Assembly: GCF_900103415.1 (NCBI RefSeq)
Contig: NZ_FMXB01000023.1
Span: 1-41,266 of the forward strand
Length of the DNA: 41,266 nt
From: Methanobrevibacter millerae
Lineage (GTDB): Archaea; Methanobacteriota; Methanobacteria; Methanobacteriales; Methanobacteriaceae
Reading direction: 5' to 3'
Numbering within the stretch: position 1 is the stretch's first letter; every line of letters starts with the position of its first letter. The position numbers and the translations under genes are program-made. Below, in pieces: positions 2,653 through 29,910 of the stretch. The notes under the pieces are model-generated. The model did no database searches. It was given only the letters and a program-made list of their open reading frames with translations, and was not told where the DNA came from.

Positions 2653-3447
2653 CTATTCCTTTAAACATATATTTTTATACTCGCAGTTGCCGCACTTTTT
2701 TTCGCTCATTTTTACATTAGGAACCTTTGCGTCGTATTCTATTTCTTTTACTTCATTAATGATGTCAAACAATGATTTTCTGATGTTGACATCCATTACC
2801 ACAGGCCTTCGTTCGTTGATTTTGGCGTATTCGACGAATCCAACGAAGACTTCAGTCTTGAATTCCTCTTCTATCAGCAGTGCGCACATTCCGACGTCAA
2901 CGGCATCCTGGTCCCAGACTCCCTTGGCCGGAGGACTGTTGTATTTGATGGAAATGGGGTAATATTTGCCGTCAACGATTTCTATCTTGTCGCACACTCC
3001 GCTGACTTCCATGCGGGCATCCTTGAGGTGGTAGGAATACATGCAGTTCGGGAAAAACATGTCCACAATCGCATAGCCGTTTTTTCCCAGAAGTTCCATG
3101 GCCTGTTTTGCTTTAATTGCCTGAAGCTTGATGCTGAAATAGGTTTCATTGTTTATTTCAACGATCTGGTCGGTCGTCAAACCCAAATCCATGCTTTCAA
3201 TGGAGGAGAAAGTGCTTTCAAGATAGCTTGGGATGTTTTCTGAAAGGATTTCCTCCACTTCAACAAGGCCCATTTCCTTTTTCAGCTTTCGCATATTCTT
3301 CTGTATAAGGTCCTGCGTGTCTATTTTAATCTTTTTAAGCTCGAGATTTAACTGCATGTCGTTTCTTTGCCTGTTGTCAACATGCGTCTGCAGATACAAT
3401 TTCATCGGGCAGTACATGTGTGTTTTTATTGAAGATATTGTTATCAT
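2653..3447 (-). CDS. Orphan Cas4-like PD-(D/E)XK nuclease
   Basis: 264-residue protein with the Cas4/RecB-like layout. Cys13 in YCPMKLYL near the N-terminus and three Cys at the C-terminus (C252, C255, C261; CGNCEYKNIC) are the four ligands expected for an Fe-S cluster. The nuclease core shows the motif II Asp (D153 in GVCDKIEI) and Lys168 in PISIKY. The position two before that Lys, normally Glu in the D...ExK motif, is Ser166, so catalysis may be altered. Cas4 trims protospacers for CRISPR adaptation, but no cas1, cas2 or CRISPR array is present here. It is longer than most Cas4 (about 160-220) owing to a helical insert at residues 30-100. A TATA-like stretch on the minus strand near 3491-3503 and an aagaggtt ribosome-binding site support the ATG at 3447. 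Confidence 0.78.
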   Translation of the reverse strand: MITISSIKTHMYCPMKLYLQTHVDNRQRNDMQLNLELKKIKIDTQDLIQKNMRKLKKEMGLVEVEEILSENIPSYLESTFSSIESMDLGLTTDQIVEINNETYFSIKLQAIKAKQAMELLGKNGYAIVDMFFPNCMYSYHLKDARMEVSGVCDKIEIVDGKYYPISIKYNSPPAKGVWDQDAVDVGMCALLIEEEFKTEVFVGFVEYAKINERRPVVMDVNIRKSLFDIINEVKEIEYDAKVPNVKMSEKKCGNCEYKNICLKE

Positions 3448-3511: not shown

Positions 3512-3606
3512 TGATGCCGTAAATTCTTATTAAATAAGTAAATATGGTGTGGTTAGGTAAATTCTTAGCTTTGACATGAATTCTTAGGAGTCAGGACAAT
3601 TCTTCA
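3512..3606 (+). repeat. 19-bp imperfect tandem repeat array, locus A (5 units)
   Basis: Five consecutive 19-base units start at 3512, 3531, 3550, 3569 and 3588. Four of them end in aaattcttat, aaattcttag, gaattcttag or caattcttca; the second unit is degenerate. The phase is exact, with no insertions. The array lies between the promoter side of the Cas4-like gene and the 3' end of the gene at 3604-4677, touching that gene's stop codon. A second array with the same unit length and core lies at 29028-29160. Function unknown. Confidence 0.65.
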
Positions 3607-8309: not shown

Positions 8310-9251
8310 ATGAAAGAAAAAACATCCATTAACTTGAGAAAATCTATGAATAGAGGATCTGTAGAACAAGAAACTAAAATTCATGATAAACCTGGAGAAA
8401 TAATGAAGATTGCAACTTCAGACGTTGTATCAATTCCTCCTAGTAAAAGTATTAAGGATACTGCTAAAGTAATGATGGAACATGAATTCAGGAGATTGCC
8501 AATCACTGATCCTGGTTCCGGCAAAGTTTTAGGTATTGTAACAGTAATGGATATATTGGATTTCTTTGGTGGAGGAAATAAATTTAATATTATTGAGAAA
8601 AAATACGAAGACAACTTTTTAGCAGCTATTAATGAACCTGTACGTGAAATCATGTCACGTGATGTAATTTCATTATCCAGCAAATCTTCCATTAAAGAAG
8701 TTGTTGATTTGATGTTGGCAAAACAAATTGGAGCGCTCCCTCTTGTTGACGGCGACGATAAACTCGTCGGTATCGTAACTGAAAGGGATATCGCATTGTC
8801 ATTTGCAGGCGAATTGGATGAAAAGGCTGTACACGATTACATGACAACCAAAGTCTTCACTACCACTCCAGGTACTCCAATCGAAAGTGCCTGTAAGATT
8901 ATGGTCAGAAACGGCTTAAGAAGAATTCCTATTGTTGGAGGAGAAGCCGACATTTCAAAGGCAGCTAAAAAATTATTGGGAATCGTAACTTCAACTGATA
9001 TTATTCGTTTCTTAAACGCAAAAGAGTTATTTGATAATTTAAACTCCAATGCAGCAAGCAAAGTACTCGAAACTAAACTGTCTGATATCATGGTTAAGGA
9101 TGCAGTAATTGCAGAACCTGAAGACAGCATTAACGAAATCTGCGAATTATTCAAAATCAGCAACATCGGTGGAGTGCCTGTAGTCAGGGATAATGATGTA
9201 GTAGGTATCATAACTGAAAGGGATATCTTGAGAGCTATTAAAAACTTATAA
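8310..9251 (+). CDS. Protein with four CBS domains
   Basis: 313-residue cytoplasmic protein built of two Bateman modules (four CBS domains at about residues 30-90, 110-165, 170-235 and 250-312), with repeats such as S-I-K-E-V-V-D-L-M-L and G-I-V-T-E-R-D-I. CBS pairs bind adenine nucleotides or related ligands and usually act as energy or metabolite sensors. No catalytic domain is fused. A gaggtg ribosome-binding site precedes the ATG at 8310. A second four-CBS protein follows 15 bases later, so the two are probably co-transcribed and may form mixed complexes. The ligand is unknown. Confidence 0.88.
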   Translation: MKEKTSINLRKSMNRGSVEQETKIHDKPGEIMKIATSDVVSIPPSKSIKDTAKVMMEHEFRRLPITDPGSGKVLGIVTVMDILDFFGGGNKFNIIEKKYEDNFLAAINEPVREIMSRDVISLSSKSSIKEVVDLMLAKQIGALPLVDGDDKLVGIVTERDIALSFAGELDEKAVHDYMTTKVFTTTPGTPIESACKIMVRNGLRRIPIVGGEADISKAAKKLLGIVTSTDIIRFLNAKELFDNLNSNAASKVLETKLSDIMVKDAVIAEPEDSINEICELFKISNIGGVPVVRDNDVVGIITERDILRAIKNL

Positions 9252-9266
9252 TTATGGAGAATTAAT

Positions 9267-10067
9267 ATGCAAGTTAAAAATTTAATGTCTAAAACGCTAA
9301 TTACCATCGACAAAGACCAGAGTCTTGCCGATGCATTAAAATTACTTAGGAAAAATAGAATTTCCCGTCTTCCTGTTCTGAACAACAAGGAACTGGTGGG
9401 TATAATTTCAGAAAGAGACATTGCAGCTAAGCTTGGTTCTTCAAAATATGAAAGCATGCCTGCTTCAAGGCTTCACGTTTCATCCGTTATGGTCAAAGAC
9501 ATTATTACTGTTCCTCAGACCATGCAGCTTGATGAAGTGGCAAACATAATGCTTGAAAACGGAATCGGATCCGTGCCTGTCATGGAAGACGACAAAATGG
9601 TCGGTATCGTTTCAAAAGCTGACTTCGTCACATTGGCCGTAGATGGCGAATACGACAAAATCTGTACAAAGGATTTAATGACCAAGGATGTAAAGACTGT
9701 TTCTCCATCCGAAAGGCTTATCCACGCAAGAAGAGTAAGTCTCGATTCAAAAGTCGGCAGACTGCCAGTTCTTGATGACAGCGAACTTGTCGGAATGATT
9801 ACTTCCAAAGACCTTATGAGGGCATTCATCGACTTCAGGAAAAAGGTTCCTGAAAAGTATCAGAAATCCCAAATCAAGGAAGTGCTCGTTGAAGACATCA
9901 TGTCCACAAACCTTACCGTCGTAAGCAAGGACACCTGCATTTCAGAGGTCTCAAAAATCATGATGGACACCGGCTACAACGGTTTGCCTGTTGTGGAAGA
10001 CGATGAGCTTATTGGAATCGTAACCCAAACAGATATCCTAAGGCTCATTGCAAAACTCGAAGCATAG
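9267..10067 (+). CDS. Second protein with four CBS domains
   Basis: 266-residue protein consisting of four CBS domains with almost no linker, starting directly in the first one (M-Q-V-K-N-L-M-S-K-T-L-I-T-I). It is a paralogue of the preceding gene, with recurring G-I-(V/I)-(S/T)-x-(R/K)-D motifs. A nucleotide-sensing role is inferred from the family. The close spacing to its neighbour argues for a common transcript. A T-rich tract after the stop (10092-10110) may terminate it before pheA. Confidence 0.87.
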   Translation: MQVKNLMSKTLITIDKDQSLADALKLLRKNRISRLPVLNNKELVGIISERDIAAKLGSSKYESMPASRLHVSSVMVKDIITVPQTMQLDEVANIMLENGIGSVPVMEDDKMVGIVSKADFVTLAVDGEYDKICTKDLMTKDVKTVSPSERLIHARRVSLDSKVGRLPVLDDSELVGMITSKDLMRAFIDFRKKVPEKYQKSQIKEVLVEDIMSTNLTVVSKDTCISEVSKIMMDTGYNGLPVVEDDELIGIVTQTDILRLIAKLEA

Positions 10068-26714: not shown

Positions 26715-27977
26715 TTAATTAGGCAGGGATACCTTGATCTCTTTTGGTCGTGGAGGAATTGTCCATCTCCAATCTACTAACCAACCTTTAATAGGTTCTA
26801 ATAATTTTAACTTCTTACTGTTTGTGCTTTGGCTGATAACTGTCCCATCAAATGATTTTAACTGGAAGTAGCCGTTGCTGCGTTTTCCGGTAATGAAACA
26901 TTCAATGCCGTTATACATTACTTTATCGTATCTTCTAAAGTCATTAATGATATAATGTGATTGGTTTTTTCTGCGTTTTCCTCCTTTGCTTGGTTTGGCT
27001 TTATGGATTTGTCGGTTGTGTCTTCTTACTTTTTTAAACAAATATTCAATGCTGGATTGTTCTGCTTGTGGATTGTGGCTGATTATAAAAGCGTCATTGC
27101 AATGGGACTTAGGAATGCCTAGTTTTTCACGGTTATATTTGGTTAAATAGCCAAATGTTTCATGAACATTGTCAAATTCTTTTTTAAGTAGTTCCATAAG
27201 TCTTTTTCGTATGATATTCATATGGGAAGTATGATTGAATCTTGTTACTTTCTTGTTAAATTTTAATTCGCCGTTATGGACTTTATGATGACATTCGCTG
27301 CATAGTGTTGTGAGATTTTCCATTCGGTTAGATCCGCCTTGGCTTTTGGGTATTATGTGGTGAGCTTCGAATTTTACTTGTTTTTTTCCACATATTTGGC
27401 AGGTATATTTGTCTCGACTTAAAACGGCTTGTTTTACATTATAAAAATCTTTGCCTTCACCGTTTTGGTATTCAACTCCTTGTACATTAGGATTTTTTAA
27501 TTTGTGAGTGTCGAATTCTGCAGTTTCAACAATTATATTCTGTATGGGAATAATGTTGCAGACTCGTTTGATAATGGTGAGGTGGCAGTCTATCTTATGC
27601 TGAATGCTTGGAGCCAGTTTTCCTTTTTTGCCACGATTTTTAAATCTTGGCGGACGATACCTCAATTTTCTTGTCCTGCGATTTCTACGTAGAATACTTC
27701 GGTTTTCTAGTAATTTAGGAATGTCCCGTCGTAATTCTACAGTGGCTTTAAACAATTCCTTATTAGTGGTTGTTGCGGATAAGCCCACATATTTGCTTCC
27801 TGCATCAACACCTAAATTAACAGGTTGTTTATGTCCATAACTGCCATACAACAATTGTATGGTGAATGGTGTTCTATTTACCACTTTTGCTTTTTTTTCT
27901 TTCAATAATATTCTTGCTTTTCTTGGTTTACATGGCATCAAAGGTTCACCATGCATGTTTAGTACGTAAACAAACAT
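26715..27977 (-). CDS. iscB: IscB RNA-guided endonuclease (Cas9 ancestor family)
   Basis: 420-residue IscB with all parts visible: PLMP motif at residues 12-15, RuvC-I with Asp58 (N-L-G-V-D-A-G-S-K-Y), Arg-rich bridge helix at 97-111, RuvC-II with Glu151 (I-I-V-E-T-A-E-F-D), an HNH domain with zinc Cys pairs C193/C196 and C226/C229 and catalytic His206/His207, and RuvC-III with His292 and Asp295 (S-H-C-N-D-A-F). A beta-rich target-interaction domain follows from about 345. No catalytic residue is missing, so it is probably active with an omega-RNA encoded just upstream. The ggaggt site 9 bases before the ATG supports the start. No TnpA is nearby. Confidence 0.93.
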   Translation of the reverse strand: MFVYVLNMHGEPLMPCKPRKARILLKEKKAKVVNRTPFTIQLLYGSYGHKQPVNLGVDAGSKYVGLSATTTNKELFKATVELRRDIPKLLENRSILRRNRRTRKLRYRPPRFKNRGKKGKLAPSIQHKIDCHLTIIKRVCNIIPIQNIIVETAEFDTHKLKNPNVQGVEYQNGEGKDFYNVKQAVLSRDKYTCQICGKKQVKFEAHHIIPKSQGGSNRMENLTTLCSECHHKVHNGELKFNKKVTRFNHTSHMNIIRKRLMELLKKEFDNVHETFGYLTKYNREKLGIPKSHCNDAFIISHNPQAEQSSIEYLFKKVRRHNRQIHKAKPSKGGKRRKNQSHYIINDFRRYDKVMYNGIECFITGKRSNGYFQLKSFDGTVISQSTNSKKLKLLEPIKGWLVDWRWTIPPRPKEIKVSLPN

Positions 27978-28250
27978 AATGTTTACCTCCTATTCCTGAG
28001 TTATTTTATCCCTCGACAAAGTTATCCCAAGGTTTTAGATTGTAAGCAACACTGTTCCTACCATCACAGAACTTGTTTAATCACTTACCGTAGAGCGTGG
28101 AACTGGGATTAAACATTCCACGGTACCTATGATATTCTTGGGTAACGTAGACCACGATTTAATGGTCTGAGTCTATTAAACTTGTAGATTCCCAGAAAAT
28201 TCTAGAAATCTACGGCTTCTATAAGCCGTGGTAGTTTAACTATTAAACCT
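27978..28250 (-). ncRNA. Predicted IscB omega-RNA and left end of the element
   Basis: Non-coding, relatively GC-rich stretch upstream of iscB, where omega-RNA is expected. Several perfect stems are present: cgtggaa/ttccacg (28096-28102 with 28116-28122), agacca/tggtct (28149-28154 with 28163-28168), gtagatt/aatctac (28184-28190 with 28207-28213) and a terminal hairpin ctacggctt/aagccgtggtag (28210-28234). The last two compete for the same ctac. The guide would come from the flank beyond about 28240-28250. Exact ends are not determinable without comparison to an empty site. Confidence 0.7.
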
Positions 28251-28395: not shown

Positions 28396-28602
28396 TTATT
28401 GATTTTGGATGGCTTCAATTTCTGTTATTGACAGTCCTGTGATTTCTGATATTTTTTCTAATCCGCAGTTTAGTATTGTTAATCTTGTTATTGCACTTTT
28501 TAATGAGATTTCGTTATCATTTAATAAATCTCGAATTGTTTCTATTTTTCCTGTGTTGTATTGTTCTTCTCCATAATCTTTTATAAAATCTACGTTGTTC
28601 AT
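28396..28602 (-). CDS. Small protein like the C-terminal part of Rpn nucleases
   Basis: 68 residues from the ATG at 28602. The sequence (K-D-Y-G-E-E-Q-Y ... I-R-D-L-L-N-D-N-E-I-S-L ... I-S-E-I-T-G-L-S-I-T-E-I-E-A-I) resembles the end of Rpn/PD-(D/E)XK transposase-like proteins, which are normally about 300 residues. The nuclease core is absent. A clear gtgaggg ribosome-binding site at 28614-28608, 5 bases before the ATG, argues for a real stand-alone gene and not just a fragment. In bacteria, short C-terminal Rpn products block the full-length toxin; a similar role here is only an idea. Confidence 0.55.
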   Translation of the reverse strand: MNNVDFIKDYGEEQYNTGKIETIRDLLNDNEISLKSAITRLTILNCGLEKISEITGLSITEIEAIQNQ

Positions 28603-28643
28603 AAAATCCCTCACTTGTTTATTAATTTCTTCTGAAAAAATGG

Positions 28644-28802
28644 TTAATTAACTACCAATAAGCAAAATATATTAATTAAACATAATACTATCTCCATTAT
28701 TAGTAAAGTTATAACTATTTTTTTATTATATGCTTTTTTTTGAGCAATCATATAAACTATTATTATTAATATTAATGTAATTAGTATTGTGATTATTAAC
28801 AT
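28644..28802 (-). CDS. 52-residue hydrophobic peptide, two membrane helices
   Basis: Not a usual-size gene, but the minus strand reads ATG to TAA for 52 residues: a helix at about 1-18 (M-L-I-I-T-I-L-I-T-L-I-L), a short basic loop (Q-K-K-A-Y-N-K-K) and a second helix to the end. A run of six G (28819-28814) lies 11 bases before the ATG and could be a ribosome-binding site. It lies between the 30-residue peptide and the Rpn-like small gene on the same strand. The AT-rich codons (ata, tta) could also arise by chance in low-GC DNA. Confidence 0.45.
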   Translation of the reverse strand: MLIITILITLILIIIVYMIAQKKAYNKKIVITLLIMEIVLCLINIFCLLVVN

Positions 28803-28858
28803 TATTTTTTATTCCCCCCTAAATCTTAAATATTTAAATAATCATATAATACATCATA

Positions 28859-28877
28859 GTGGGATTATTAATCCCAC
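28859..28877. promoter_or_regulatory. Palindromic hairpin at the end of the 30-residue peptide frame
   Basis: gtgggatta, then one T, then taatcccac is a near-perfect palindrome with a 9-base arm. It overlaps the stop codon of the 30-residue peptide and lies between it and the 52-residue peptide, so it could attenuate transcription or act as a protein-binding site. Confidence 0.4.
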
Positions 28878-28960
28878 TCTGTATTATATAAAGTTAGTAT
28901 CAACATACACATCCCAATCAGAATGTTAATCATGTTGAATACTAACTCTAAGAACTCAAT
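28868..28960 (-). CDS. 30-residue hydrophobic peptide with apparent AUU start
   Basis: A very strong ribosome-binding site, aggaggtg (28974-28967), lies 6 bases before ATT at 28960, opening a 30-codon frame to TAA: M-E-F-L-E-L-V-F-N-M-I-N then a hydrophobic run and an acidic end. GTG codons at 28969 and 28966 are in frame but overlap the ribosome-binding site. A TATA-like tttaaatag on the minus strand near 29008-29017 precedes it. The stop overlaps the hairpin at 28859-28877. One predicted membrane helix. Confidence 0.45.
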   Translation of the reverse strand: MEFLELVFNMINILIGMCMLILTLYNTEWD

Positions 28961-29027
28961 TTCCACCACCTCCTATTAAGTTCTATACAATATTATGGTT
29001 ATACTACTATTTAAATTGCTTTGTTTT

Positions 29028-29160
29028 GAGTTAGAACAATTCTTATGACTCAAGGAAACATTTTTGACTCAAAGCAATTCTTAGAAGTGAAAACAATACT
29101 TATGAGTTAGAACAATTCTTAGCAGTGACGACAATTCTTAGTGGTGAGAACAATTTTTAT
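29028..29160 (+). repeat. 19-bp imperfect tandem repeat array, locus B (7 units)
   Basis: Seven units of exactly 19 bases start at 29028, 29047, 29066, 29085, 29104, 29123 and 29142. The approximate consensus is gagttagaacaattcttag; the second unit is the most divergent. The core agaacaattct contains a small inverted repeat agaa-N3-ttct. The array lies between the promoter of the small-peptide row (minus strand) and the promoter of taw2 (plus strand); the last unit runs into the taw2 TATA box. The same unit and phase occur at 3512-3606. Confidence 0.75.
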
Positions 29161-29187
29161 ATACAATCCGATTCATATAATCTTTTA
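29154..29187 (+). promoter_or_regulatory. taw2 promoter
   Basis: tttatata at 29156-29163 is a consensus TATA box. Transcription about 25 bases downstream would start at 29185-29188, exactly at the ATG of taw2, so the message is probably leaderless. This places the repeat array upstream of the transcript and argues against the longer GTG start at 29125. Confidence 0.6.
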
Positions 29188-29910
29188 ATGAAATATAAAA
29201 AAATCGGTGATATTCTAATTTTAGATGAAAATCCAGGTAATTTGGATGAATTGGCCAGAAAGCATAATGTTAAAACGATAATGAGAATCAATCATATTCA
29301 GGGCACTAAAAGGGAACCTTCTTATGAGGTTTTATATGGCAGCGAAACCGAAACCGTCAACAGAGAGAACAAGTGCCTGTTTAAGCTTGATTTGTCAAAA
29401 GTGATGTGGTCAAAGGGAAATACGAATGAACGGTTGAGAATTGCCAAAATGGTCAAAAAAGACGAAACGGTCCTTGACATGTTTGCGGGAATCGGATACT
29501 TTTCCATTCCGATAGCTGTCCATTCCGATGCAAAGAAAATAATTTCCATTGAAATCAATCCCAATTCCTATCATTACCTGTGCGAAAACATTAAATTAAA
29601 CAAATGCGATAACGTTACTCCGGTTTTGGGCGATTGCCTTGTTGAAACTCCAAATTATAAGGCTGACCGTATTGTGATGGGTTATGTCAAGACCACTCAT
29701 CATTACCTTAAGGTCGCCGTCAACAGCCTCAATGAGGGGGGAATTATCCATTATCATGAAACTGTTCCCGAAAAGCTGATTGAAACGAGACCAATTTCAA
29801 GAATAAGGGACGCTGCCGGTGAGAGAAACGTTGAGCTTTTAAAAATAAATAAGATTAAAAAATATGCTCCAGGTGTGGAGCACGTAGTTATAGACGCTTT
29901 AATAGATTAA
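29188..29910 (+). CDS. taw2: tRNA-Phe 4-demethylwyosine aminocarboxypropyltransferase Taw2
   Basis: 240-residue SAM-dependent enzyme of the Trm5/Taw2 family. It adds the aminocarboxypropyl group of SAM to the wyosine precursor at position 37 of tRNA-Phe. SAM-binding motifs are V-L-D-M-F-A-G-I-G-Y-F-S, E-I-N-P-N-S and D-R-I-V-M-G-Y-V. The M-G-Y-V form in place of N-L-P supports Taw2 over the methyltransferase Trm5. The ATG at 29188 gives the K-K-I-G-D-I-L-I start shared with homologues; a GTG at 29125 would translate the tandem repeats. The last 23 bases overlap cofG, which is convergent. Confidence 0.87.
   Translation: MKYKKIGDILILDENPGNLDELARKHNVKTIMRINHIQGTKREPSYEVLYGSETETVNRENKCLFKLDLSKVMWSKGNTNERLRIAKMVKKDETVLDMFAGIGYFSIPIAVHSDAKKIISIEINPNSYHYLCENIKLNKCDNVTPVLGDCLVETPNYKADRIVMGYVKTTHHYLKVAVNSLNEGGIIHYHETVPEKLIETRPISRIRDAAGERNVELLKINKIKKYAPGVEHVVIDALID

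What the first reader, a model, noticed from the sequence alone, without database searches (positions are those of the whole stretch)
29028..29160. Seven exact-phase 19-bp tandem repeats upstream of taw2 and a short-gene row
Units of precisely 19 bases, diverged in sequence but never in length, lie between two divergent promoters, and the last runs into the taw2 TATA box. Conserved spacing with drifting sequence suggests a periodic protein-binding array (about 1.8 helical turns) or a repeat kept by some mechanism. It is unlike a CRISPR array because there are no spacers.
Basis: seen in the sequence. Interest (0 to 1): 0.65.

Follow-up and report, generated by a model that had tools for sequence, protein, structure and literature searches.

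The report
Methanobrevibacter 19-bp promoter repeat arrays
The seven repeats are one copy of a family of switch-like DNA arrays, found only in the gut methanogen genus Methanobrevibacter, that sit between back-to-back promoters of toxin-like, mobile, structured-RNA and ordinary genes; they probably form the landing strip of a gene-regulating protein that nobody has identified yet.

Summary
In detail: seven units of exactly 19 bp (29028-29160), head to tail, between two outward-facing TATA boxes. It is not a private feature of taw2. The same unit (SASTSARRACAATTYTTAK) recurs at about 16 places in this genome and widely in Methanobrevibacter. An exact two-unit pattern run over 84,980 species genomes hit Methanobrevibacter only. 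Near-by units on one strand are always multiples of 19 bp apart. Units within an array are no more alike than units of different arrays, so this is a shared recognition sequence held by selection, not drifting tandem copies. Both TATA boxes face outward, so the array should not be transcribed and acts as DNA. Orthologous arrays persist across species; copy number varies. The strongest gene link is to Rpn-like (PD-(D/E)XK toxin-type) genes: 17 of 124 arrays lie just upstream of one (0.03 expected), always in the same orientation. At taw2 the array occurs only where an Rpn-like gene or its remnant lies between psmB and taw2, so taw2 is probably a bystander. Another array fronts an undescribed structured RNA in seven species. 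Best explanation: operator array for head-to-tail binding of an unidentified regulator controlling an accessory/defence-leaning regulon. The regulator and the direction of regulation are unknown.

The parts
29028..29160 (+). array of seven 19-bp direct repeats: GAGTTAGAACAATTCTTAT GACTCAAGGAAACATTTTT GACTCAAAGCAATTCTTAG AAGTGAAAACAATACTTAT GAGTTAGAACAATTCTTAG CAGTGACGACAATTCTTAG TGGTGAGAACAATTTTTAT
29156..29163 (+). TATA box of taw2 (TTTATATA), overlapping the end of unit 7; the start codon is 25 bp downstream of the box, so the mRNA is probably leaderless
   Evidence: sequence; TSS distance from general knowledge of archaeal promoters
29008..29015 (-). TATA box (TTTAAATA) of the leftward promoter, 12 bp from unit 1
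29188..29910 (+). taw2 (TRM5/TYW2-type tRNA methyltransferase), right-hand neighbour, probably a bystander
28396..28614 (-). 72-aa stub; its last 48 aa match the C-terminus of the Rpn-like protein that occupies this site intact in genome G020 (50% identity)
28868..28969 (-). possible 33-aa small hydrophobic ORF in the leftward transcript behind an AGGAGGTG Shine-Dalgarno-like sequence (start codon uncertain)
28644..28802 (-). 52-aa hydrophobic ORF with a Shine-Dalgarno-like sequence, second ORF of the leftward transcript
28840..29000 (-). start of the leftward transcript, predicted to fold very stably (three hairpins, -50.3 kcal/mol, z = -6.0)
3550..3606 (+). second, weaker 3-unit array of the same family (TGGTTAGGTAAATTCTTAG CTTTGACATGAATTCTTAG GAGTCAGGACAATTCTTCA), upstream of a Cas4-like gene
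2653..3447 (-). Cas4-like nuclease gene, 103 bp from the second array and pointing away from it

Best explanation
The array is an operator: a row of identical-polarity recognition sites for a sequence-specific DNA-binding protein of Methanobrevibacter that binds neighbouring sites head to tail. It lies between two outward-facing promoters, so one bound array can control both. The protein's regulon is mostly accessory: Rpn-like toxin-type nucleases, IS-borne tnpB, cas genes and a structured RNA, with housekeeping genes such as taw2 and trpE caught on the other side of the shared promoter. At this locus the array came with, or arose for, an Rpn-like gene that sat between psmB and taw2 and has since been reduced to a stub in this genome; the array now also faces two small hydrophobic ORFs. 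Shown: the repeats, strict phase, common consensus, genus restriction, promoter position, conservation, and the Rpn association. Inferred: that a protein binds, that binding is cooperative, and that it regulates (repression of the accessory side is my guess).
For: Same unit at about 16 loci in this genome and at 124 loci (E <= 1e-3) in 41 genus genomes. All 136 same-strand unit pairs within 120 bp are spaced 19, 38, 57, 76, 95 or 114 bp. Units no more alike within than between arrays (0.724 v 0.739, permutation P = 0.89), 22.9 bits per unit and no dyad symmetry beyond chance (P = 0.24), as expected for direct-repeat binding. TATA boxes are concentrated just outside both array ends and face outward (left offsets 6-14: 29 hits, about 3 expected; right offsets 3-5 and 17-25: 30 hits, about 4 expected); 50 of 65 arrays have an outward gene within 420 bp, 29 on both sides. 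Orthologous arrays at trpE, the STAS-like/ATPase pair, split polB, valS-ncRNA and the mreB-like operon across species with varying unit number. The ncRNA promoter is conserved in all six species whose upstream sequence was printed, and an array was also found there in the seventh. 17 arrays lie <= 350 bp upstream of an Rpn-like gene, 0.03 expected, always with the same unit polarity. At taw2 both Rpn and array are intact in G020, both decayed in G009 and G062, and both absent in genomes with psmB directly upstream. An exact pattern scan of 84,980 species finds only Methanobrevibacter.
Against: No binding protein was identified: no family model gave an HTH regulator next to the arrays I scanned; one MarR-like gene beside an array in one genome (L186) is a reading of sequence only. 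The gene set is mixed (trpE, split polB, hmd, DUF2264), so a simple regulon logic is not proven. In this genome the array is in excellent shape although Rpn is a stub, so it must now serve something else. Array loci were collected with a two-unit model, which favours the 19-bp lag itself (not the longer multiples). No expression or binding data exist here.
Confidence: 0.72

Rival explanations
1. Portable promoter module: the array with its two TATA boxes is mainly a mobile bidirectional promoter that spreads with Rpn-like genes, tnpB elements and integrases, and regulation by a dedicated factor is secondary or absent.
For: Arrays of nearly the same sequence precede tnpB at several places in G014, G061 and G063, precede integrase-linked regions in G010, G014 and G062, and enter the taw2 locus with Rpn.
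Against: A plain promoter needs no strict 19-bp multiples or 22.9-bit units; orthologous arrays stay put for long times at trpE, split polB and valS; units of different arrays share one consensus without local similarity.
Confidence: 0.12
2. Tandem core-promoter-like sites: each unit is a degenerate BRE/TATA element and the array is a row of TBP/TFB sites or decoys.
For: In T-rich relatives the unit (ACAATTTTTAT) resembles BRE plus TATA, 17 of 78 internal units contain a TATA-like 8-mer, and the last unit of the taw2 array merges with the real TATA box.
Against: In the window's own genome 0 of 37 internal units contain a TATA-like 8-mer, yet phase and consensus are strongest there; the conserved SASTSA half is not a core promoter element.
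Confidence: 0.05
3. Slippage-born minisatellite without function, kept in phase only because copies arise by tandem duplication.
For: One array (G000 C20) has three identical neighbouring units; unit number differs between species.
Against: Within-array identity is not higher than between-array identity; about 16 unlinked loci share the consensus; position beside TATA boxes; conservation across species in the ncRNA promoter.
Confidence: 0.04
4. Structural DNA element (histone-positioning or architectural protein site, insulator between divergent genes) rather than a regulator's operator.
For: Location between divergent promoters, AT-rich, genus-wide, mixed neighbouring genes.
Against: Recognition sequence is too specific (22.9 bits) and asymmetric; most divergent gene pairs lack it; some arrays front only one gene or an RNA.
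Confidence: 0.07

Closest known systems
BldC-type direct-repeat operators (Streptomyces; PMC5859096)
   Same: Variable number of asymmetric direct repeats in promoter regions, head-to-tail polarity, AATT-containing sites, broad regulon.
   Different: BldC repeats are 9 bp per protomer in bacteria; here the unit is 19 bp with two differing conserved blocks, in archaea; no BldC homologue was identified.
Archaeal Lrp-type multi-site operators (Ss-LrpB and others; PMC4046817, PMC2995911)
   Same: Archaeal regulators that can bind operator sites cooperatively near TATA boxes (abstracts seen; site spacing from general knowledge).
   Different: As I know them, Lrp sites are palindromic; the unit here has no dyad symmetry.
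Halovirus HF2 intergenic repeats carrying promoters (PMC8707807)
   Same: Archaeal intergenic repeats tied to promoters and conserved in position in a genus.
   Different: HF2 repeats contain the promoter itself; here tandem units lie upstream of and between the TATA boxes, on chromosomes; no hit in viral contigs.
Plasmid iterons (17-22-bp direct repeats bound by Rep proteins; general knowledge)
   Same: Strictly phased direct repeats of similar length with constant polarity.
   Different: Dispersed at about 16 chromosomal promoters, 1-7 units each, no Rep gene or origin association seen.

Membership tests
CRISPR array | identical repeats separated by unique spacers | tested here: not met
   contiguous 19-bp units, no spacers
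Operator array of a sequence-specific regulator | same recognition sequence at many unlinked promoters | tested here: met
Operator array of a sequence-specific regulator | conserved at orthologous promoters across species | tested here: met
Operator array of a sequence-specific regulator | a protein binds it and changes transcription | not testable with these tools
   no binding or expression data
BldC-type direct-repeat operator | asymmetric direct repeats, no dyad | tested here: met
BldC-type direct-repeat operator | 9-bp repeat per protomer | tested here: not met
   period is 19 bp in all 136 pairs
BldC-type direct-repeat operator | BldC-family protein in the genome | not tested
   no search made
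Minisatellite made by slippage | neighbouring units more alike than distant ones | tested here: not met
   0.724 within v 0.739 between arrays, permutation P = 0.89
Rpn family (neighbouring gene) | PD-(D/E)XK core and variable repeat-bearing C-terminus | tested here: met
   invariant D and E-x-Q in EFQST, (EGK)n-type C-terminal repeats
Rpn family (neighbouring gene) | passes a curated family cut-off | tested here: not met
   TIGR01784 19.7 bits against a cut-off of 52.1; therefore called Rpn-like only

The most novel reading that the evidence does not exclude
Methanobrevibacter has a dedicated silencing or stress-responsive regulator that polymerises head to tail along 19-bp asymmetric repeats and keeps acquired toxin-like, mobile and small-RNA genes under one switch; the arrays travel with those genes as ready-made divergent promoters. 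It would be an undescribed kind of archaeal control system for foreign genes.
Probability: 0.25. Interest if true: 0.8.

Novelty: new variant of a known kind. Interest (0 to 1): 0.6.

Why it matters
Methanobrevibacter is the main methane-making genus of the rumen and of the human gut, and as far as I know few of its regulators have been characterised. A genus-specific operator array with about 16 copies in one genome is a direct bait for the missing regulator and defines candidate target genes, including Rpn-like toxin-type genes and an undescribed structured RNA. It also gives a clean case of a housekeeping gene (taw2) whose upstream control region was replaced by that of an inserted toxin-type gene.

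Tried and rejected
CRISPR-like or spacer-bearing array: no spacers. Slippage minisatellite: units are not more alike within arrays. TBP/BRE decoy row: 0 of 37 internal units TATA-like in the own genome. taw2-specific regulation: most genomes have taw2 without the array. Viral origin: no exact match in IMG/VR. Rfam identity for the array-driven RNA at valS: none at gathering scores, and none at E <= 1 in the loci given. A known regulator through neighbouring genes: Pfam, NCBIfam and PADLOC gave none. Literature: six searches listed no paper whose title or abstract describes these arrays; only a few papers were opened.

Full report
1. The observation. Window 29028-29160 holds seven head-to-tail units of exactly 19 bases. 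Tandem Repeats Finder sees the right-hand part with periods 19 and 38. A leftward TATA box (TTTAAATA, 29015-29008) and the taw2 TATA box (TTTATATA, 29156-29163, overlapping unit 7) flank it.

2. It is a family. Searching the window's genome (G000, 2.72 Mb) with the array DNA gives ten further places with E from 1.5e-16 to 6.8e-5. A weight matrix and a sequence-only two-unit model give the unit SASTSARRACAATTYTTAK and about 16 loci in the genome, with 1 to 7 units, including a second weak array in this window at 3550-3606. A broader model (R2) finds 124 loci at E <= 1e-3 in 41 genus genomes. With the narrower model, eight of 51 genomes scored, all of them in the same genus; none of the other genera tested had a hit. 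An exact two-unit pattern run over 84,980 bacterial and archaeal species genomes hits 17 stretches, every one Methanobrevibacter (M. millerae SIG13 and rumen or gut MAGs); IMG/VR gives none. Contig lengths identify G009 as M. millerae SIG13, G020 as RGIG7892, G035 as RGIG3316, G062 as RGIG4352 and G032 as RUI021. The hits in more distant members of the genus are weaker (T-rich units, two or three copies) and some may be chance.

3. Phase and selection. In the fetched loci all 136 same-strand unit pairs within 120 bp are multiples of 19 apart (19: 73, 38: 35, 57: 19, 76: 7, 95: 1, 114: 1). The loci were chosen with a 38-bp model, which explains lag 19 but not the longer multiples or the absence of other lags. 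In G000 (11 arrays, 43 units) each unit carries 22.9 bits; identity is 0.724 within arrays and 0.739 between arrays (permutation P = 0.89), and there is no dyad symmetry beyond chance (P = 0.24). So the units are not recent tandem copies that drift; each is held near a common asymmetric recognition sequence. That is how binding sites behave.

4. Position. In 49 arrays TATA-like boxes cluster just outside both ends and face outward (alignments). Of 65 arrays 29 have outward genes within 420 bp on both sides, 21 on one side and 15 on neither; several of these last front an RNA or a mobile-element end. Since archaeal transcripts start downstream of TATA, the array itself should not be transcribed; it acts as DNA (inference). 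Many arrays end in a bare SAGTGAG half-unit followed by CTCAACAAGCTTTAAATA, that is a half-site fused to BRE and TATA.

5. Conservation and gene content. Orthologous arrays persist in synteny: trpE (G000, G009, G035, G062; 5, 2, 2, 2 units), the HATPase-like/STAS-like pair (G000, G009, G035, G062; 4, 3, 5, 5), split polB (G000, G014, G009, G062), the mreB-like operon and others. Pfam hits for neighbouring genes include Anth_synt_I_N, DNA_pol_B, HMD, DUF2828/DUF7788, DUF3800, DUF2264, CRISPR_Cas2, Phage_integrase and MreB. One array precedes a structured RNA of about 200 nt between lacA and valS. It is single-copy, found in exactly seven of 41 genomes (those richest in arrays), has five pairs with two-sided changes kept and no Rfam match. 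In the six species printed its promoter reads nearly TATAAATACTTTTTGTTATGAGTGAGGACAATTYTTA..ACAATATTTAT-CAGTGAGCTCAACAAGCTTTAAATA; the seventh (G062) also has an array there. In G020 the left TATA and first unit are kept although the left neighbour differs.

6. The Rpn link and the taw2 locus. 17 of the 124 loci lie within 350 bp upstream of an Rpn-like gene, against 0.03 expected; because some are orthologous these are roughly 13 independent sites. Every clear array upstream of an Rpn-like gene has the same polarity (12 of 12 with score >= 20). Many other Rpn-like genes have no array, so the link is not obligatory. At taw2: G020 has an intact Rpn-like gene and array (score 56); G009 and G062 have Rpn-like genes broken by stops and degraded arrays (scores 8.5 and 24.5); the window has only a C-terminal stub (28396-28614, 50% identity over 48 aa) with an IscB element beside it, and a strong array (141.5); the other genomes examined have psmB directly upstream of taw2 and no array. 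The array therefore goes with the Rpn-like gene, and taw2 is probably a bystander whose upstream region was replaced up to its TATA box. In the window the leftward promoter now faces a stable hairpin leader (z = -6.0) and two small hydrophobic ORFs, which may be why the array is still intact (inference). At trpE in G000 too only a 96-aa C-terminal Rpn-like fragment remains. In E. coli the separately translated Rpn C-terminus is the antitoxin (PMC10327210), so retention of C-terminal pieces would fit loss of the toxin with the antitoxin kept (inference). The Rpn-like proteins do not reach a curated Rpn cut-off but keep the PD-(D/E)XK-type D and E-x-Q residues and repeat-bearing C-termini.

7. 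Mechanism. Asymmetric, strictly phased direct repeats of variable number upstream of promoters are best explained by a regulator that binds neighbouring sites head to tail, as shown for bacterial BldC (9-bp repeats; PMC5859096). The 19-bp step is 1.8 helical turns, so successive copies would wind round the DNA. The bound array could repress or activate both divergent promoters. The regulator was not found.

8. Verdict. A real, genus-specific operator-array family that I found no description of; known in kind (direct-repeat operators), unusual in its strict 19-bp period, number of copies, shared divergent promoters and company of Rpn-like genes and a structured RNA.

Noticed in passing
window 26715-27977 (-) and 28001-28239 (-): IscB (RRXRR plus HNH domains) with its HEARO/omega RNA directly upstream (Rfam RF02033, 104 bits), beside the Rpn-like stub.
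   Followed up: partly
L283:1501-1700 (-) (G000 C18) and six relatives (L280, L281, L282, L284, L285, L286): Undescribed structured RNA of about 200 nt between lacA and valS, present in exactly the seven array-richest genomes, with covariation and no Rfam match.
   Followed up: partly
window 28884-28960: Palindromic stretch that recurs (78% identity over 80 bp) at an unrelated place without an array in G009 (L275): a possible small palindromic mobile element.
   Followed up: partly
L040:5168-6676 (-) (G000 C4): DUF2828/DUF7788 protein behind a six-unit array with a leader of about 400 nt without long ORFs, containing a tRNA T-loop-like GGTTTGAATCC; possibly a non-coding RNA.
   Followed up: no
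L043 left of array (G000 C15) and window 28396-28614: Only C-terminal (antitoxin-like) pieces of Rpn-like genes survive next to arrays in the window's genome.
   Followed up: partly
L040:10839-10914 against L154:3018-3074: The two arrays share flanking gene families (9029-10012 and 12155-13012 of L040), but G000 has a DUF3800 gene and G035 has cas2 nearby: array sites may be hot spots for swapping accessory genes.
   Followed up: no
L131, L132, L164, L166, L167: tnpB elements of G014, G061 and G063 carry a nearly constant two-unit array about 190 bp upstream of tnpB (in L131 a reverse-transcriptase gene lies between them).
   Followed up: partly
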